64,000 nucleotides of DNA from Megasphaera sp. NM10 (GTDB lineage: Bacteria > Bacillota > Negativicutes > Veillonellales > Megasphaeraceae), in contig NZ_APHY01000020.1 in the NCBI RefSeq assembly GCF_000417505.1, positions 1 to 64,000 on the forward strand, in the 5' to 3' direction. Under the pieces are notes generated by a model. It had not been told where the DNA came from, made no database searches, and saw only the letters and a list, made by a program, of their open reading frames with translations. This document shows positions 1 through 43,605 of the stretch, one piece after another; position 1 is the first letter of the stretch, and every line of letters starts with the position of its first letter. The translations under genes and the position numbers were made by a program.

Positions 1-376
1 GCAACAAGGTCCGGGCATGCCGCCATATGATGAGAACGGAAACGGGCGATAGTCGCATGATCGGGAACGGTTTCCCTTCCAGCAGATATTGGAAATTCAA
101 ATCTCTCCGGCAAGCCGATTCAATACGACGGGAACTGAAAATCTGGTTCATGCTGGCATAAATAACGATGGCCAGTAACTGGCGTGGTGAAGCCTGATTT
201 TTCTCGATACGAGAATACGTCTGGTACAGCGGTGATAAATCCATCCTTTCTATGAGCAGCTTCACTAACCGCACGGGATCGTCATCCGGAATCTGAAATG
301 AAATATTCAAGGGAAGTGATAGTTGATAAGGCGCTTCCCATATTGTATAATTGACATGCGTATTTAGTGTCGTCAT
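1..376 (-). pseudogene. IS1182-type transposase, N-terminal fragment, frameshifted
   Basis: The gene reads leftward from an ATG at 374-376 and runs off the window edge. The first part contains SPLYQTYSRIEKNQASPRQL and ASMNQIFSSRRIESACRRD. These resemble the helical N-terminal domain (DUF772/InsH-N) of IS1182-group DDE transposases. After LEGKP the frame is lost. One base out of phase, the sequence continues as VPDHATIARFRSHHMAACPD, which is the expected continuation of the family. One base therefore appears to be missing near positions 76-82. No catalytic DDE residues lie inside the window. It could be a dead insertion-sequence copy, or an intact one with a consensus error. Confidence 0.8.
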
Positions 377-430: not shown

Positions 431-681
431 CAGATTTTTTTGTTCAGCCCTAATGGATACGGCTGCCTGGCCCCTGGCGGGTGACATTGCGGGAACGACC
501 TCGGTCCGGCGCGGTCCGGGTAGGCCGTGCCGGATGCCGTGCGTGCTATTTGCGTCCGGCGTGCTGCTTTGTTTGAGCGCAGCGAGTTTCAGCACGCCAG
601 CAAATGGCACTCTCGGCAAGAGGAGTGGAGCACGCGAACCAGCTAGGGGCCAGGTGGCCGATGCCAACCTCTTCAGAAGAA

Positions 682-730
682 TCCCTCAGACCGCCGTTGG
701 CGGCCAGCTCCCCTTCACAGGGGAGCCTTT
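682..730. repeat. Short double-hairpin repeat, copy 1
   Basis: Contains GACCGCCGTTGGCGGCC followed by GCTCCCCTTCACAGGGGAGC, two adjacent hairpins of the family also found at 8417, 12404, 12481, 12536, 12989, 13044, 15751, 34899 and 43388. Confidence 0.8.
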
Positions 731-8740: not shown

Positions 8741-11700
8741 ATGATTAAACAGATCGTGAAAGCCTTAGACGGCAACGAAGCAGCTGCTGACGTTGCGTAT
8801 AATTTTACTGAAGTCGCTACGATTTACCCGATTACTCCGTCGTCGCCGATGGCAGAACACGTCGACGTCTGGTCGGCCAATGGCCGTAAGAATCTCTTTG
8901 GCCAGCCCGTCAAATTAGTTGAAATGCAGTCCGAAGCCGGCGCTATCGGTGCCGTCCACGGCGCTTCGGAAACGGGCAGCCTCTGTTCGTCCTTTACGGC
9001 GTCGCAGGGCCTGATGCTGATGATTCCGGTCATGCACCGCCTGTCGGGCGAATTGAAACCGGTCGTCCTGCACATTGCCGCCCGTACCGTTGGGACTCAC
9101 ACCATGTCCATCTTTGGCGACCATTCCGACGTCATGGGCTGTCGCAACACGGGCTGGGCTATGCTCTGCAGTGCCAGCGTCCAGGAATGTGCCGACCTGG
9201 CAGCCGTTGCCCATCTGTCGACCATCAAAGGCCGCGTTCCGTTCATGCACTTCTTTGACGGCTTCCGCACATCCCACGAAATCCAGAAAATCAAGATGCT
9301 GCCGGCTGAAGAACTGGGCAAACTCATCGACCGCGATGCTCTCTATCATTTCAAACACACCGGCCTGAACCCGGAACATCCGGTTATGCGCAGTACCGTT
9401 ACCAACCCGGATATGTTCTTCCAGTCCCGCGAAGCCAATAACCCCTGGTATCAGCGCCTGCCCTACATTGTCCAGGACTACATGGACAAGATCAGCGAAC
9501 TGACGGGCCGTCCGTACCACCTCTTCGATTACTACGGCGCTCCTGACGCAGAACACGTCGTCATCGCCATGGGTTCTGTCACCGGTGCCATCCAGGAAAC
9601 TATCGACAAGCTCTGCAAAGAAGGCAAGAAAGTCGGCTTCATCCAGGTCCACCTCTATCGTCCGTTCTCGCTGGAACACTTTATGAAAGCCATGCCTGAC
9701 ACGGTCCGCACGATTACCGTCATGGACCGCACGAAAGAACCGGGCGCCCTGGGCGAACCGCTCTACGAAGATGTCTGCGCAGCCATGTCCCACGTCAAAC
9801 AGGACGTCACCGTCCTGGCCTGCCGCTATGGCCTGTCGTCGAAAGACGTACCGCCGGCATCGATCAACGCCGTCTTCACCAACATGGATTCGCTCCAGCC
9901 GAAGAACCACTTCACCCTGGGCATCATCGACGATGTTACCCATCATTCCCTGGCCGACGTACCTATCACAGTCGACACGGAAGGGACCATCAGCTGCAAG
10001 TTTTGGGGCTTTGGCTCGGACGGCACGGTTGGTGCCAACAAGAACTCCATCAAGATCATCGGCGACAACACGGATATGTATGTCCAGGCTTACTTTGAAT
10101 ACGATACCAAGAAATCCGGCGGCGTCACCAAGTCGCACCTGCGCTTTGGCAAGAATCCGATCCGGGCTACGTACTATATCAAATCGGCGGACTTCCTGGC
10201 CTGCCATAAACAGGCATACATGGGGACTTACGATATTGTCAGTGAAATCAAGGACGGCGGCATCTTCCTGCTCAACTGCAGCTGGGATAAAGACGACGTC
10301 GCCAACCACCTCAGCAATAAAGTAAAACGCCAGCTCGCTTCCAAGCACGTCCGCTTCTATATCATCAATGCCACCAAGATCGCCGAAGAAATCGGCCTGG
10401 GCAGCAACCGCACCAATACGGTCCTGCAGGCAGCTTTCTTCAAACTGGCCAACATCCTGCCCATCGACGATGCCGTGAAATACATGAAAGACGCCATTGC
10501 CAAGACCTATCTGGCCAAAGGCGAACAAGTCATCGCCATGAACCAGGCTGCCGTCGACCGCGGCATTTCGGATATCGTCGAAGTCACTGTACCGGAAGCA
10601 TGGAAAGACCTGCCGTCTGACCCCGTCGTCGAAGATACCCGCGATATTCCGGAATTCATCAAGAAAGTCGTCGAACCGGCTAACCTGCAGCTCGGTGATA
10701 CCATCCCGGTCAGTGAATTCGTCCCCTATGCCGACGGTTCCTACCCCCTGGGCACGACGAAATATGAAAAACGCGGCATCGCATCGACCGTTCCTGAATG
10801 GGACCTGGAAAAATGCGTCCAGTGTAACCGCTGCTCCCTGGTCTGCCCGCACGCCGCTATCCGTCCGTATCTGGTAACGGCTGACGAAAAAGCCAAGGCT
10901 CCGGCTGACTTCAAGACCAAGAAAGCCATCGGCAAGGGCCTGGAAGACTATGAATTCCGCATCCAGGTTTCGCCGCTCGACTGCTACAGCTGCAGTGCCT
11001 GCGTCAATGCCTGCCCGGCTCAGGCCCTGACCATGAAGCCGCTGGAAACGCAGCGTCATGAAAGCGTCGACTGGGATTATGCCCAGACACTCCCTGAAAA
11101 ACATACGACTCTCGATAAATTCTCCGTCAAAGGCAGCCAGTTCCATCAGCCGCTCCTCGAATTCAACGGCGCATGTGCAGGCTGTACGGAAACGGCTTAC
11201 ATGAAGATCCTGACCCAGCTCTTCGGGCCGCGCATGATCGTCGCCAATGCTACGGGCTGTACCCAGGCTTGGGGCTCGGCAATGCCCAGCATCCCGTACA
11301 CGACGAACTGTGAAGGCTTCGGGCCGGCCTGGTCGAACTCGGTCTTTGAAGACAACGCAGAATTCGCCCTCGGCATGTCCCTGTCCATGGAACAGCAGCG
11401 CGATGCTATCCGCATTAAATCGGAAGAACTCCTGGGCCTGACTGACGGTGCCCTCCACGACGCCATCAAAGCCTGGATCGATTCCATCGGCGTCGCTAAC
11501 GAAGGCGAAGTCACAGAAGGCATCAGCCGGACATACATCAAAGAATTGATGGCTGCTCATCTCACCGGCCGGGCTGCAGACTTGCAGAAAGAAATCCTGG
11601 CTCATAAAGAACACATCATCAAGAAGACCATCTGGATGTATGGCGGCGACGGCTGGGCTTATGATATCGGCTACGGCGGTCTGGACCACGTCCTGGCTAT

Positions 11701-12271
11701 GAACGCCAACGTCAATATCATGCTCGTCGACACGGAAGTCTACTCCAACACTGGCGGCCAGTCGTCGAAAGCTACGCCAATCGGTGCTGTCGCTCAGTTC
11801 GCTGCATCGGGCCGCAAGTTCAACAAGAAAGACTTGGGCCGCCTGCTCATGACCTATGGCCATATCTATATCGCCCAGGTCGCCCTCGGCGCTGACCCGA
11901 ACCAGCTCATCAAAGCCATCAAAGAAGCAGAAGCCTACAATGGCCCGTCCATCATCATCGCCTATGCACCGTGCATCAACCATGGCATCAAAGGCGGCAT
12001 GGGCAACGCCCAGCACGAAATGAAACGCGCCGTAGACTGCGGTTACTGGCACCTCTATCGCTACAACCCGCTGCTCAAAGAAGAAGGCAAGAACCCCTTC
12101 ATCCTCGACTCCAAAGAACCGCAGCAATCCTTCCGCGAATACCTCATGGGTGAAACGAGATATGCTGCCCTGACGAGAACCTTCCCGGATATCGCCGAAG
12201 AACTCTTTGCCAAGGCCGAAGAATTCGCTAAGAAGAAATACGAAACTTATAAGGAATTGGCTGATAAATAG
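8741..12271 (+). CDS. nifJ: Pyruvate:ferredoxin (flavodoxin) oxidoreductase
   Basis: A 1176-residue single-chain PFOR. It converts pyruvate and CoA to acetyl-CoA, CO2 and reduced ferredoxin, the central step from lactate, sugars or amino acids in anaerobes. The N-terminal TIYPITPSSP is the pyruvate-binding domain signature. Two 4Fe-4S motifs follow, CVQCNRCSLVCP (from Cys692) and CYSCSACVNACP (near 748). The TPP-binding GDGWAYDIGYGG lies near 969, and GACAGC near 810 supplies proximal-cluster cysteines. The ATG at 8741 is chosen over a GTG three codons upstream because AAAAGGGGAG sits at the right distance. It is monocistronic with its own promoter and terminator, and its codon use is strongly biased, consistent with high expression. 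Confidence 0.97.
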   Translation: MIKQIVKALDGNEAAADVAYNFTEVATIYPITPSSPMAEHVDVWSANGRKNLFGQPVKLVEMQSEAGAIGAVHGASETGSLCSSFTASQGLMLMIPVMHRLSGELKPVVLHIAARTVGTHTMSIFGDHSDVMGCRNTGWAMLCSASVQECADLAAVAHLSTIKGRVPFMHFFDGFRTSHEIQKIKMLPAEELGKLIDRDALYHFKHTGLNPEHPVMRSTVTNPDMFFQSREANNPWYQRLPYIVQDYMDKISELTGRPYHLFDYYGAPDAEHVVIAMGSVTGAIQETIDKLCKEGKKVGFIQVHLYRPFSLEHFMKAMPDTVRTITVMDRTKEPGALGEPLYEDVCAAMSHVKQDVTVLACRYGLSSKDVPPASINAVFTNMDSLQPKNHFTLGIIDDVTHHSLADVPITVDTEGTISCKFWGFGSDGTVGANKNSIKIIGDNTDMYVQAYFEYDTKKSGGVTKSHLRFGKNPIRATYYIKSADFLACHKQAYMGTYDIVSEIKDGGIFLLNCSWDKDDVANHLSNKVKRQLASKHVRFYIINATKIAEEIGLGSNRTNTVLQAAFFKLANILPIDDAVKYMKDAIAKTYLAKGEQVIAMNQAAVDRGISDIVEVTVPEAWKDLPSDPVVEDTRDIPEFIKKVVEPANLQLGDTIPVSEFVPYADGSYPLGTTKYEKRGIASTVPEWDLEKCVQCNRCSLVCPHAAIRPYLVTADEKAKAPADFKTKKAIGKGLEDYEFRIQVSPLDCYSCSACVNACPAQALTMKPLETQRHESVDWDYAQTLPEKHTTLDKFSVKGSQFHQPLLEFNGACAGCTETAYMKILTQLFGPRMIVANATGCTQAWGSAMPSIPYTTNCEGFGPAWSNSVFEDNAEFALGMSLSMEQQRDAIRIKSEELLGLTDGALHDAIKAWIDSIGVANEGEVTEGISRTYIKELMAAHLTGRAADLQKEILAHKEHIIKKTIWMYGGDGWAYDIGYGGLDHVLAMNANVNIMLVDTEVYSNTGGQSSKATPIGAVAQFAASGRKFNKKDLGRLLMTYGHIYIAQVALGADPNQLIKAIKEAEAYNGPSIIIAYAPCINHGIKGGMGNAQHEMKRAVDCGYWHLYRYNPLLKEEGKNPFILDSKEPQQSFREYLMGETRYAALTRTFPDIAEELFAKAEEFAKKKYETYKELADK

Positions 12272-12300
12272 GTAAAACACGCTAATGCCATATACACACC

Positions 12301-12338
12301 CGAAAACAGGGCTGCCCCCAAAGGCGGCCCTGTTTTCG
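12301..12338 (+). terminator. Terminator of nifJ
   Basis: CGAAAACAGGGC and GCCCTGTTTTCG form a perfect 12-bp stem around a 14-base loop. The T-run is short. Confidence 0.7.
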
Positions 12339-12343
12339 CACAC

Positions 12344-12380
12344 TCGGACTCAGATGCGGCAGAGCCGCGACAGACTCAAA
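12344..12380. repeat. 33-bp palindromic repeat, copy 2
   Basis: Reverse complement of the 755-790 repeat: CTCGGACTCAGATGCGGC, loop, GCCGCGACAGACTC. Confidence 0.65.
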
Positions 12381-12403
12381 AGAAGGACATCGCCTCGGAA
12401 ACC

Positions 12404-12450
12404 AAGCCTCCCCTCATAGGGGAGGTGGCCGTCAGGCCGAAGAGGCTGAA
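12404..12450. repeat. Short double-hairpin repeat, copy 3
   Basis: CCTCCCCTCATAGGGGAGG followed by GGCCGTCAGGCC and GAAGAGG. It lies just left of the direct repeat that begins at 12470. Confidence 0.8.
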
Positions 12451-12469
12451 GTTCACCAATGTCTATCGA

Positions 12470-12579
12470 TGATCAAAAAGCAACCTCTCAGTCAGCTTGC
12501 GCTGACAGCTCTCCTATGAGGAGAGCCATTGGGAAAGCCTCTCCTCATAGGGGAGGTGGCCGCTAGGCCGGAGAGGTTG
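12470..12579 (+). repeat. 110-bp direct repeat, left copy, flanking the DUF559 gene
   Basis: Two short double-hairpin units back to back: GTCAGCTTGCGCTGAC with CTCTCCTATGAGGAGAG, then CTCTCCTCATAGGGGAGG with GGCCGCTAGGCC. It has the same length as the right copy at 12978-13087, with 7 mismatches by hand alignment. Confidence 0.85.
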
Positions 12580-12608
12580 AAGTTCAATATATTTTAAAAG
12601 GAGGTTCT

Positions 12609-12980
12609 ATGAAAACGCTTCCCTATTCTAAAGAAAATATATCATTTGCCCGTTTATTAAGGAAAAATATGACCAAAGAAGAACGTCACTTATGGTATGA
12701 TTTTTTACGGACGTATCCAGTGAAATTTTATAAACAACGACGAATTGGTAATTATATTGCCGATTTCTATTGCAAAGAAGCAGGGCTCATCATTGAATTA
12801 GACGGTGGGCAGCACTATGATGAAGCCGGTATGAAGTCAGATCAGGAACGGACAGCTGTATTGGAATTCTATGGATTGACGGTCATCCGTTTTACCAATT
12901 TGGATATCCATAAAAATTTTAGCGGAGTTTGCCAAACTATTCATCAATACGTCAGTGAGCATAAAGGCTGTTCCTGGTGA
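12609..12980 (+). CDS. DUF559 (Vsr-like endonuclease-fold) protein
   Basis: A 123-residue DUF559 protein. The family has the very-short-patch/restriction-endonuclease fold but mostly unknown function. Visible features are MTKEERHLWYDFLR (about 20-33), KFYKQRRIGNYIADFYC (37-53) and LIIELDGGQHYDEAG (57-71). The acidic ELDGGQH motif and the ADFYC Asp fit a PD-(D/E)XK-like nuclease site. An AGGAGG ribosome site precedes the ATG. The gene is clearly richer in A+T than its neighbours, which suggests separate origin. It lies exactly between two 110-bp direct repeats, and its stop codon TGA is the first base triplet of the right copy. Mobility or a role in repeat movement is inference. Confidence 0.88.
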   Translation: MKTLPYSKENISFARLLRKNMTKEERHLWYDFLRTYPVKFYKQRRIGNYIADFYCKEAGLIIELDGGQHYDEAGMKSDQERTAVLEFYGLTVIRFTNLDIHKNFSGVCQTIHQYVSEHKGCSW

Positions 12981-13087
12981 TTAAAAAGCAACCTCTCAGT
13001 CAGCCTGCGCTGACAGCTCTCCTATGTGGAGAGCCATTGGGAAAGCCTCCCCTCATAGGGGAGGTGGTCGCCAGGCCGGAGAAGTTG
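12978..13087 (+). repeat. 110-bp direct repeat, right copy
   Basis: Same layout as 12470-12579: GTCAGCCTGCGCTGAC with CTCTCCTATGTGGAGAG, then CCTCCCCTCATAGGGGAGG with GGTCGCCAGGCC. It starts at the stop codon of the DUF559 gene. Confidence 0.85.
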
Positions 13088-13142
13088 TCTTTCAAATTCT
13101 CCTTTTTTTGTGATAAAATAAAAGAAAAAAGCAGGTGATAAT

Positions 13143-13718
13143 GTGAAGAGAATATGGCTCATCCGTCATGGCGAAAGTATTGCCAATGCCGGCGAAGCGA
13201 CGCAGGATCATCGCAATATTCCCTTGTCGGAATTGGGGCTCAAGCAGGCGCAGGCCTTGGCTTTACAGATTCCTAAGAAACCGGACCTGATTGTCACGTC
13301 GCCTTATCTTCGGGCGCAGCAGACGGCCATGTGTACAATAGGGCGGTTTCCTGATACGGTGACGGGGATTTGGGACTGTGTCCATGAATTTGTTTATTTG
13401 GCACCGGCGACGTGTGTCGGGACGACGTCGCAGCAGCGGCGGCCGCGGGTCATCAATTATTGGCGCAAACTCGACCCGGACTATGTCGACGGCGAAGGGG
13501 CCGAAAGTTATCGCCAGCTCATCGGGCGAATCGAACGGACCTTATCTCTGCTGCAGCGGCGGCCGGAGCAATTCATCCTGGTCTTTACGCACGCCCAGTT
13601 TATCCGCAACCTGCTCTTGGTCTATGAAAATCCGGGCAGGCCTGTAGAAGAATACATGGCCGCTTTCCGCCGCAGCCGCCCGGTCCATAATGGACAGATT
13701 GTTGAAATTACGATGTAA
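13143..13718 (+). CDS. Histidine phosphatase family protein
   Basis: A 191-residue member of the phosphoglycerate-mutase-like histidine phosphatase superfamily. LIRHGES (5-11) carries the phosphorylated His, and TSPYLRAQQTA (about 56-66) and FTHAQFIRNLL (about 146-156) supply the other active-site Arg/His residues. The start is GTG at 13143 behind AGCAGGTGATAAT; the ATG two bases earlier would hit a stop at once. The substrate is not predictable. It is probably co-transcribed with the acetyltransferase 13 bases downstream. Confidence 0.88.
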   Translation: MKRIWLIRHGESIANAGEATQDHRNIPLSELGLKQAQALALQIPKKPDLIVTSPYLRAQQTAMCTIGRFPDTVTGIWDCVHEFVYLAPATCVGTTSQQRRPRVINYWRKLDPDYVDGEGAESYRQLIGRIERTLSLLQRRPEQFILVFTHAQFIRNLLLVYENPGRPVEEYMAAFRRSRPVHNGQIVEITM

Positions 13719-13731
13719 AGGAGAAATTACC

Positions 13732-14004
13732 ATGGAATTACAATATGGACCCAATAAAATCTGGATGGAAAATGAAGCTGGAACGGTCGTAGCTGAAGTG
13801 GACTTCGTCGAACGGGAAGACGGCAATTACGACATCGTCCACACCTTTGTCGACGACAGCCTGCGCGGCCAAGGTGCCGCTGGCAAACTCGTCAAAGCCG
13901 CAGCTGACGAAATACGGCGGCGCCATAAAAAAACGGCCACCAGTTGCTCCTACGCCGACGCCTGGTTCCGCCGCCACAAAGACGAACAGGATTTACTTGG
14001 ATAA
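13732..14004 (+). CDS. GNAT-like N-acetyltransferase (YjdJ/NATD1 type)
   Basis: A 90-residue minimal GNAT-fold acetyltransferase. Central VHTFVDDSLRGQGAAGKLVK resembles the acetyl-CoA-binding RGxGxxxxL loop of the YjdJ/NATD1 subfamily, and CSYADAWFRRH fits its conserved C-terminal C-x-Y-x(5)-H end. The start at 13732 is set by AAAGGAG. An upstream in-frame start at 13690 lies inside the previous gene and is rejected. Acceptor substrate unknown. Confidence 0.85.
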   Translation: MELQYGPNKIWMENEAGTVVAEVDFVEREDGNYDIVHTFVDDSLRGQGAAGKLVKAAADEIRRRHKKTATSCSYADAWFRRHKDEQDLLG

Positions 14005-14021
14005 TCAGGACGAGAATCCAC

Positions 14022-14140
14022 TTGATTTATCTACATTCATGATAGAATGAGAATAGAGCTAGCTCGGTGGTGGGACATCGGCTCTCCTCTAGTTTTAGTG
14101 TTTGAAGAAGGCCGTGTACCACAAGTACGCGTTTTTTTTT
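14022..14140 (+). ncRNA. Candidate small RNA of about 90 nt with terminator
   Basis: A weak promoter (TTGATT 14022-14027, 15-base spacer, TAGAAT 14043-14048) is followed by a G/C-rich segment that includes the palindrome GAGCTAGCTC (14056-14065). An AGAGC/GCTCT pair follows, and then a terminator: CGTGTAC, loop CACAA, GTACGCG, nine T (14113-14140). I see no ribosome site or protein. I compared it by eye with SRP RNA and 6S RNA and it does not match. It could also be just the terminator region of the preceding gene pair. Confidence 0.35.
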
Positions 14141-14173
14141 CATATTACAAGTTTATCGCTTGCTTAACACTCG

Positions 14174-14204
14174 AAAAAAGCTGCCTTCGTATGGCAGCTT
14201 TTTT
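14174..14204. terminator. Bidirectional terminator
   Basis: AAAAAAGCTGCC, loop TTCGTAT, GGCAGCTTTTTT. It serves the minus-strand nitroreductase gene and possibly the plus-strand transcript from the left. Confidence 0.8.
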
Positions 14205-14205
14205 C

Positions 14206-14801
14206 TTACTGAAGGACTTTCACCCGTTCTTCGATGGGGACTTTTACGATGGGTTTTGGCGGTTCTGTGGGATGGCCGAAGGGCATCTGGGCGATGAGCT
14301 GCCATTCTTTGGGAACGCCTGTGAGTTTTTTGACTTCGTCGTCGATGAGGGGGTTGTAGTGCTGGAGGTTGACGCCGAGTCCCAGGTCGGTCAGGGCGGT
14401 CCAGACGGCGAACTGCATCATGCCGTTGGCCTGCTGGGCCCAGATGGGGAAGTTCTTGGCGTAGAGCGGGAACTGGGAGGCCATGTTGTCGACGATGGTC
14501 GTGTCGTCGAAGTAGAGGATCGTGCCATAGGCTGCGGCGAAGGAGTTGATCTTGGCTTCCGTCGTGGCGAAGTTGGCTGGCGGGACGATTTTGCGGAGCG
14601 TATCCATGGTGATTTTCCAGATGGCGTCGTGCGTTTCGCCAAAGGCGATGACGCTTTGCCGGACTGCATGTTGAAGGCCGACGGTACTTCGCGGATGACG
14701 TCTTCGATAGTCTTGGTAATGGTTTCCTGGGGAATCGTGACGTCTTTGCTGAGGGTGTAGTTCGTGCGCCGGTTGCTGACGGCTGTGATGAAGTTGGTCA
14801 T
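14206..14801 (-). pseudogene. Nitroreductase family protein (Frm2/CinD-like), frameshifted
   Basis: The ATG at 14799-14801 has AGGAGGTG before it and begins MTNFITAVSNRRTNYTLSKD, an NAD(P)H-dependent FMN nitroreductase of the small fungal/Firmicutes type. The frame carries NMQSGK and then breaks. One base out of phase it resumes as VIAFGETHDAIWKITMDTL through NFPIWAQQANGMMQFAVWTA to a stop at 14206. The span of 596 bases is one short of a multiple of three, so a single base is missing near 14652-14655. Restored length is 198 residues, normal for the family. A good promoter lies upstream. Either a recent mutation or a consensus error. Confidence 0.85.
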
Positions 14802-14868
14802 AAGAGCACCTCCTGAATTTACAAATCATTTCCTAATTGATAGTAATTATTAGTTGTTTATTGACTAA

Positions 14869-14897
14869 AGTATACCATAGTGAAGAAAAGAAGTCAA
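14869..14897 (-). promoter_or_regulatory. Promoter of the nitroreductase gene
   Basis: On the minus strand TTGACT (14897-14892), 17-base spacer, TATACT (14874-14869). It is divergent from the rpsD promoter, with 13 bases between the two -35 boxes. Confidence 0.75.
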
Positions 14898-14910
14898 GAA
14901 TCATGACCCC

Positions 14911-14940
14911 TTGACAGCAAGGCTTTTTTCATGATATTAT
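14911..14940 (+). promoter_or_regulatory. Promoter of rpsD
   Basis: TTGACA (14911-14916), 18-base spacer, TATTAT (14935-14940). Confidence 0.8.
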
Positions 14941-15000
14941 TTATACATTGCGTAAGCAAAATTTAATTTCTTGAATTACTAATATGAGGTGATGTAGAAA

Positions 15001-43083: not shown

Positions 43084-43605
43084 TAGAAAAACCATCCTTT
43101 CTGATGTGGAACAGAGTATAGAATAATATAGTATATAAGACTTTTTTGACGGAGCCGCCGCTTACGCAGCTCCTTGGGGGTTACGCTGAAATGAAGAACT
43201 TGAGTTCTAAATTTCACAATCTCCATGTCTATATAGTACATTTTTTCACAATGAAATGCAAGAGGAAAATGAATTTTTCTTATGCTAGATACTCATGCTA
43301 AAGGAAGAAGCAGATGCGAAAAGAATAAAGTGGACGAATAATTCGCTATGCGTATAGTTATGTAAGGGCCGTCCCAGCGGGCGGCCCGGCTCTCCTCATA
43401 GGAGAGCTGTCAGCGAAGCTGACTGAGAGGTTGCTCTTTCAACATAGTTTGTAGTACGGAGTTTGTAGGGGCGCCACGTGGGGAGCCCGTTATGAATTTT
43501 GGAAATTCTCTCAGCAAACGGAGTGGGAAATCGCACATTTCCTAGGCGGGCCGCCCTTTGGGACGGCCCCTACGAACCCCTAGCCCCTAGCCACGAGCCA
43601 CTAAA
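43084..43605. repeat. Repeat-rich spacer
   Basis: No gene seen in the larger part. It holds hairpin GGGCCGTCC-CAGC-GGGCGGCCC (about 43368-43388), a short double-hairpin repeat (43388-43433), a double-hairpin element (43463-43573) and a heptamer array TACGAAC, CCCTAGC, CCCTAGC, CACGAGC, CACTAAA (43571-43605). Confidence 0.75.
43463..43573. repeat. CACGTG double-hairpin element
   Basis: Starts TTGTAGGGGCGCCACGTGG. The interior contains TCAGCAAACGGAGTGGGAAA. The right end hairpin GGGCCGCCC-TTT-GGGACGGCCCC finishes with CTAC. Confidence 0.8.

What the first reader, a model, noticed from the sequence alone, without database searches (positions are those of the whole stretch)
12470..13087. DUF559 nuclease-like gene exactly bracketed by 110-bp direct repeats of the double-hairpin family
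Seen: 12470-12579 and 12978-13087 have equal length with 7 mismatches, each made of two short double-hairpin units, and the gene's TGA is the first triplet of the right repeat. The gene is A+T-rich against a G+C-rich background. Known: DUF559 proteins have a Vsr-like endonuclease fold and unknown biology. Inference: the gene and its repeats behave as one unit, comparable to RAYT-REP pairs. The nuclease may nick or copy the hairpins that are spread across the genome (ten copies in this window), or the repeats may let the gene be gained and lost by recombination.
Basis: partly seen in the sequence, partly recalled or inferred. Interest (0 to 1): 0.77.

Follow-up and report, generated by a model that had tools for sequence, protein, structure and literature searches.

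The report
Nuclease gene inside mobile hairpin repeats
A tiny nuclease gene of unknown job sits between short folded DNA repeats, and across many bacteria the gene and the repeats turn up together as one small unit that has jumped around genomes, which suggests the nuclease is the missing enzyme that spreads these repeats.

Summary
Gene 12609-12980 is a 123-aa DUF559 protein (PF04480, E=5e-28) between two 110-bp repeats with 7 mismatches. A covariance model of the repeat unit finds ten copies in the window; the genome has 54 BLAST matches.

The pairing is general. In 80 related loci, hairpin units flank DUF559 on both sides in 38/76 usable cases against 0/343 control genes. They nearly always point inward, on a fixed ~444-bp unit whose homology stops at the outer hairpins. 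No target duplication was seen.

Repeats track the gene. In two families, 53/73 and 38/42 DUF559+ genomes have at least 5 repeats, against 36/177 and 19/94 without the gene; this also holds within genera. Similar hairpin-flanked DUF559 genes occur in Deinococcus, Azospirillum, Sphingomonas, Neisseria and cyanobacteria, with empty sites in the Deinococcus hpa operon.

The predicted fold matches the EDxHD homing endonuclease I-Bth0305I.

Best reading: a REPtron-like minimal mobile unit in which a lone PD-(D/E)XK nuclease, not a RAYT, mobilises hairpin repeats. Association and unit structure are shown; cleavage and copying are inferred. No paper linking DUF559 to repeats was found in the searched library. 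The direct-repeat look of this locus is incidental: the functional core is an inverted pair.

The parts
12609..12980 (+). DUF559 nuclease gene, 123 aa; conserved residues E25, Q43, D52, E63, D65, H69, D78, R81
   Evidence: PF04480 E=5e-28; invariant columns over 48 relatives; fold matches 3hrl and 3r3p
12470..12587 (+). left composite repeat <A B> (118 bp; 110-bp core)
12978..13095 (+). right composite repeat <A B>; begins with the gene's TGA
12405..12447 (+). extra solo B-type double-hairpin unit left of the composite
   Evidence: R1 42.9 bits, E=3e-13; also in sister genome G002
12482..12528 (-). A-type unit of the left composite
   Evidence: R1 50.2 bits, E=7e-16
12536..12578 (+). B-type unit, tail facing the gene start: left end of the core unit
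   Evidence: R1 45.8 bits, E=2.7e-14
12990..13036 (-). A-type unit, tail facing the gene end: right end of the core unit
   Evidence: R1 37 bits, E=3.9e-11
13044..13086 (+). B-type unit of the right composite
   Evidence: R1 36.1 bits, E=7.7e-11
680..728 (-). dispersed copy; no copy in the matching stretch of G002
   Evidence: R1 55 bits
8416..8463 (+). dispersed copy, shared with G002
   Evidence: R1 50.8 bits
15752..15799 (-). dispersed copy, shared with G002
   Evidence: R1 43.6 bits
34922..34963 (+). dispersed copy, shared with G002
   Evidence: R1 39.8 bits
43387..43432 (+). dispersed copy, absent from the syntenic site of G002
   Evidence: R1 47.2 bits

Best explanation
The gene with its inward-facing hairpin units (B> DUF559 <A) is a minimal mobile unit. 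The dispersed double hairpins (solo A, tails-in B><A pairs, composites) are its gene-less derivatives, spread in trans. Shown: discrete unit, conserved architecture, dispersal to different sites, co-occurrence with the repeats, purifying selection on the gene. Inferred: DUF559, a PD-(D/E)XK nuclease of the EDxHD/Vsr type, recognises the extruded hairpin, cuts at or near its tail, and host repair or replication copies the element into a new site, as with a homing endonuclease; the protein has no joining chemistry of its own. The repeated arm (the tail can pair with the same arm as the stem) may serve as recognition or guide sequence, as the guide does in IS200/IS605.
For: Both-sided units near DUF559 in 38/76 loci against 0/343 control ORFs of the same loci. 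Orientation: 51/56 upstream and 55/61 downstream units have the tail facing the gene. Homology between units stops at -66 and about +48..54, at the outer hairpins; unit length 444 bp median, ends AAAG/CTTT, no target duplication (2 seen, 1.4 expected). Some copies in one genome are homologous over the unit only (G602 87% over 453 bp; G413, G508). Repeat number follows the gene: family of G081, OR 10 at >=5 repeats, 35/38 DUF+ genera against 5/34; family of G305 in the window's class, 38/42 against 19/94, also within genera g8 and g11; in the window's genus only G000 and G002 have the small gene and only they have many repeats, 54 and 64 against 0-1. Empty and filled sites in the Deinococcus hpa operon. 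A. lipoferum flank palindrome at 83 places. Median dN/dS 0.06 in 120 pairs. Fold and profile match to I-Bth0305I.
Against: No movement has been observed and no cleavage shown. Some DUF559 genes have no R1-like unit nearby (12/28 and 8/18, though all 46 have some hairpin of stem >=7 within 200 nt, where about half of the few control genes do too). Repeat-rich genomes without the gene exist (28 in the G081 family, 23 of them in genera with a DUF559 member), so loss or other mobilisers must be assumed. Gene copies per genome are few and mostly diverged. Empty sites are seen only between species. A DUF559 protein of Caulobacter (VsrA) is proposed to act in mismatch repair (PMC12907096).
Confidence: 0.62

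Rival explanations
1. Passive cargo: the repeats pre-exist and are spread by something else; DUF559 genes are captured between them and gained or lost by recombination between repeats.
For: The window repeats are direct and 92% identical; repeat-rich genomes without the gene exist; the sister genome has three tandem composites right of the gene, a sign of recombination there.
Against: Elsewhere the flanking units are inverted with tails facing the gene at fixed distance; 0/343 other genes are caught this way; repeat number follows this gene, also within genera; the pairing holds with different hairpin sequences in other phyla.
Confidence: 0.17
2. Mismatch (very-short-patch) repair enzyme: DUF559 nicks at T:G mismatches like Vsr and the hairpins only insulate the gene.
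For: Fold family includes Vsr (PMC1189080); Caulobacter VsrA has a DUF559 domain, is SOS-induced and is tied genetically to a solitary cytosine methyltransferase (PMC12907096).
Against: Closest solved relatives are 3hrl and the homing endonuclease I-Bth0305I, Vsr far weaker; no methyltransferase adjoins the gene here; it predicts neither the mobile unit nor the repeat correlation.
Confidence: 0.1
3. Terminator-like hairpins: the flanks are transcription terminators or mRNA stabilisers of a selfish or stress gene, enriched because the gene must be insulated.
For: Right outer hairpins are followed by T runs (GGGAGCCTTTT); many other genes also have a hairpin on one side.
Against: The units carry a second hairpin and a repeated arm, occur on the upstream side in mirror orientation, and are dispersed in dozens of copies away from the gene.
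Confidence: 0.07
4. Free-standing homing endonuclease: DUF559 cuts an empty genomic target and the flanks are relics of target sites.
For: I-Bth0305I relationship; small lone gene; no target duplication.
Against: Insertion sites differ from locus to locus and flanking sequence beyond AAAG/CTTT is not conserved, unlike fixed-site homing; gene-less hairpins are dispersed.
Confidence: 0.04

Closest known systems
RAYT / TnpA-REP with REP/REPIN sequences (REPtrons)
   Same: One small nuclease gene flanked by hairpins; many gene-less hairpin copies, often as inverted pairs; few gene copies
   Different: Nuclease is PD-(D/E)XK (EDxHD/Vsr-like), not HUH tyrosine; no GTAG tag; unit has two hairpins plus a repeated arm
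IS200/IS605 insertion sequences
   Same: Hairpin ends, no target duplication, minimal size, sequence next to the hairpin that can pair (guide-like)
   Different: No HUH transposase; ends are inverted and nearly symmetric; mechanism unknown
EDxHD homing endonuclease I-Bth0305I (PDB 3r3p)
   Same: Catalytic-domain fold and profile similarity (TM 0.79 to target; profile E 3e-4)
   Different: No intron, intein or extra DNA-binding region; not tied to one site; flanked by dispersed hairpins
YcjD / NGO0050 (3hrl), Caulobacter VsrA
   Same: Same DUF559 family; 3hrl is the closest solved structure
   Different: Their biology is unknown or proposed as mismatch repair; not described with repeats
CGTC-tagged REPs without known transposase (Di Nocera 2013, PMC3733652)
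   Same: Dispersed palindromes lacking a known mobiliser, seen in several phyla
   Different: Published CGTC units are single hairpins with 8-9 bp stems and a CCA tail; the DUF559 flanks seen here do not fit that definition
MITEs
   Same: Gene-less copies sharing the ends of an autonomous unit
   Different: No target duplication, no DDE transposase partner

Membership tests
DUF559 (PF04480) | Pfam gathering score | tested here: met
   97.5 bits against 20.6
PD-(D/E)XK / EDxHD-Vsr fold | fold and catalytic acidic residues | tested here: met
   AF2 pLDDT 81.5; 3hrl TMt 0.81, 3r3p TMt 0.79; invariant E25, D52, E63, D65, H69
EDxHD homing endonuclease as a system | encoded in an intron or intein, or tied to one target site | tested here: not met
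   Free-standing 123-aa gene in varied sites
RAYT-REP | HUH tyrosine transposase of the IS200/IS605 type | tested here: not met
   Gene is DUF559, no Y1 transposase domain in the Pfam scan
RAYT-REP | GTAG-tagged hairpins | tested here: not met
   No GTAG or CTAC in the 110-bp repeats (sequence)
RAYT-REP (works like) | repeats flank the gene and their number follows gene presence | tested here: met
IS200/IS605-like element | no target site duplication | tested here: met
   2 seen against 1.4 expected in 35 units
IS200/IS605-like element | cleavage of one strand at the hairpin guided by base pairing | not testable with these tools
   needs a biochemical assay
CGTC REP | single stem of 8-9 bp with CGTC tag and CCA tail | tested here: not met
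   Window units are double hairpins without the tag; definition
Vsr mismatch repair | gene linked to a cytosine methyltransferase | tested here: not met
   Neighbours are a nifJ-type oxidoreductase and a phosphoglycerate-mutase-like gene; Caulobacter VsrA is unlinked too, so this is weak
Vsr mismatch repair | nicks T:G mismatches | not testable with these tools
   needs purified protein
Rfam RNA family | gathering score | tested here: not met
   no family reached its gathering score in 11000-15000

The most novel reading that the evidence does not exclude
Small DUF559 nucleases are the mobilising enzymes of a third, cross-phylum superfamily of bacterial interspersed palindromes (hairpins with a repeated C-rich or CTC-rich arm). 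They would be the first mobile element driven by a lone PD-(D/E)XK homing-type nuclease acting on hairpins, with no transposase, no covalent intermediate and no target duplication.
Probability: 0.45. Interest if true: 0.9.

Novelty: new variant of a known kind. Interest (0 to 1): 0.8.

Why it matters
Short palindromic repeats fill the spaces between genes in very many bacteria, and outside the RAYT-linked GTAG class it is an open question what spreads them (Di Nocera 2013 states that CGTC repeats apparently lack a dedicated transposase). A widespread nuclease family with no settled function now has a testable partner. If confirmed, it gives DUF559 a job, gives several repeat families a mobiliser, and adds a very small element whose mechanism differs from HUH and DDE transposition.

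Tried and rejected
Phage spread: only 3 phage records and 9 viral contigs hold relatives, so viruses are not the main carrier. Rfam: no family. Target-site duplication: none. Exact empty site in the window's genus: congeners lack gene and repeats between the same two genes, but intergenic divergence blurs the edges. CGTC REPs as the partner: the flanks of Azospirillum and Sphingomonas DUF559 genes are C-tract hairpins, not CGTC. Covariation of the unit is not counted as proof, because units were chosen by a grammar that requires stems. An eight-sequence alignment was too diverse for the collection scan, so a closer one was used; that set is therefore biased to gut Clostridia, and two whole families and other phyla were checked separately.

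Full report
Observation. The two repeats are real: 110 bp, 7 mismatches, extending to 118 bp at 92%. The gene between them is DUF559, 37.6% G+C in a 55.3% window, and its stop codon opens the right repeat. Each 110-bp repeat is a composite of two units, <A and B>, with outer ends CAACCTCTC...GAGAGGTTG. A unit is hairpin 1 (CCTCTCC-loop-GGAGAGG), a second hairpin, and a tail that repeats the 3' arm of hairpin 1. The left composite folds into a closed multi-arm structure (z = -8.1). A covariance model of the unit finds ten copies in the window.

The genome. The same repeat gives 54 matches in the 2.6-Mb genome. In the arrangement of these BLAST matches, 27 are solo A and the commonest pair is tails-in B><A, that is, the gene unit without the gene (B units are more variable and may be undercounted). 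In 15 genomes of the genus only G000 and its sister G002 have a small DUF559 gene and only these two have many repeats, 54 and 64 against 0-1. This is one gain in phylogenetic terms, so independent tests were needed. Between the two sisters, copies at 680 and 43387 are present in the window and absent from G002, while three others and the gene unit are shared. Other members of the genus keep the two neighbouring genes side by side without gene or repeats.

Related loci. A protein search gave 80 loci, mostly gut Clostridia, with some Negativicutes and others. Perfect hairpins of stem 7 or more reach 8.5-11.4 per kb within 100 nt of the gene against about 0.9 per kb far away. Full units (hairpin, hairpin, repeated arm) reach about 5 per kb within 150 nt against 0.02-0.12 per kb beyond 2 kb, and their tails face the gene in 51/56 upstream and 55/61 downstream cases; shuffled flanks gave none. 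Control genes of the same loci never had units on both sides (0/343 against 38/76). Homology between many pairs of loci stops at -66 and +48 to +54, the outer ends of the hairpins. The unit is 444 bp (5th-95th percentile 441-467), ends in AAAG and CTTT, and leaves no duplication. In genomes with two or more copies, some pairs are homologous over the unit only.

Correlation test. A covariance model R1 of the unit was run over the same genomes as a DUF559 search. Family of G081: 250 genomes, 72 genera; repeats in 70/73 genomes with a small DUF559 gene and 66/177 without; at 5 or more hits 53/73 against 36/177; by genus 35/38 against 5/34. Family of G305, in the window's own class: 38/42 against 19/94 at 5 or more hits; within genus g8 11-28 against 0-11 (p = 0.001), within g11 p = 0.018. 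Most repeat-rich genomes without the gene lie in genera with a carrier (23 of 28), as expected after loss. Not every gene has a detectable R1-type unit (16/28 and 10/18 on at least one side), although near-to-far density is about 40 and 20 fold, and every one of the 46 has a hairpin of stem 7 or more within 200 nt (controls there are few, 18 genes, 10 with a hairpin on at least one side and 2 on both).

Other phyla. DUF559 genes from Deinococcus, Azospirillum, Sphingomonas, Photobacterium, Synechocystis, Pseudanabaena and Neisseria lie between or beside hairpins with a repeated C-rich arm. All 11 such loci examined had a hairpin within 200 nt and 7 had them on both sides, against 0/19 control genes on both sides. 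In D. psychrotolerans the unit has near-perfect inverted ends of about 45 bp (read from the sequence). In the Deinococcus hpa operon the gene sits at two different junctions that are close gene-to-gene contacts in D. deserti, D. ficus and D. radiophilus. The A. lipoferum flanking palindrome occurs at 83 places on five replicons, and similar DNA is found in E. coli and Xanthomonas records.

The protein. Across 48 relatives E25, W29, Q43, D52, F53, E63, D65, G66, H69, D78 and R81 are invariant; median dN/dS is 0.06 in 120 Clostridial pairs, and 0.20 (15 changes only) between window and G002. The predicted structure matches 3hrl (N. gonorrhoeae NGO0050) and the EDxHD homing endonuclease I-Bth0305I, and Vsr only weakly; a profile search gives the same two.

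Mechanism. Shown: a conserved, selected nuclease gene in a discrete unit with hairpin ends, found at many sites, whose gene-less relatives are abundant where the gene is. Inferred: the nuclease cuts at the hairpins and host repair or replication copies the unit. Because PD-(D/E)XK enzymes hydrolyse DNA and do not join it (established knowledge), a homing-like copy step or a replication-linked step is more likely than classical transposition. The alternative pairing of the tail with hairpin 1 resembles the guide of IS200/IS605 (PMC8266576); this is a lead, not a test.

Known or new. Five literature searches naming the family (DUF559, COG2852, PF04480, YcjD) found no paper tying it to repeats; the library lacks most subscription papers. 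RAYT-REP is the nearest kind, but its defining enzyme and tag are absent. The Caulobacter VsrA study proposes mismatch repair for a DUF559 protein and is kept as a rival.

Noticed in passing
window 43360-43547: A second hairpin repeat family (GGGCCGTCCC.../...GGGACGGCCC) borders the polymorphic double-hairpin copy; similar GGGACGGCCCCTACG stretches occur in G002 at the sites matching 8416 and 43387.
   Followed up: no
window around 8538, 15800, 43580: Short degenerate tandem strings of the type CCACGAGCCACGAGCC / CTAGCCACTAGCC in intergenic DNA, differing between G000 and G002.
   Followed up: no
L033 1843-2220: Sister genome G002 has three tandem composites (period about 130 bp) right of the gene where the window has one: local amplification.
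   Followed up: partly
L227 662-823: D. wulumuqiensis has a truncated DUF559 gene still beside its hairpins; an SMI1/KNR4 gene is inserted in the same hpa operon there and in D. radiodurans.
   Followed up: partly
L065, L069, L071, L075, L083 right flanks: Several Clostridial units share about 120 bp of the same right-hand context (CTTGTCA hairpin plus a TACGGCATA palindrome) with different left contexts: perhaps a preferred target or another repeat.
   Followed up: no
Clostridial B units, e.g. L065 left flank: Read backwards, hairpin 2 of type B is CGTC-stem-loop-stem-GCCA, which recalls CGTC REPs (CGTC tag, CCA tail) though stem length differs.
   Followed up: no
window 12609-12980 compared with L033: dS of DUF559 between the two sister genomes is 0.12 against 0.34 for the neighbouring phosphoglycerate-mutase-like gene; small counts, could reflect later transfer or conversion.
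   Followed up: no
L002 901-1152: A second DUF559-domain match in G000, weak (30 bits), within a long reading frame: a different protein class, not the small gene.
   Followed up: no
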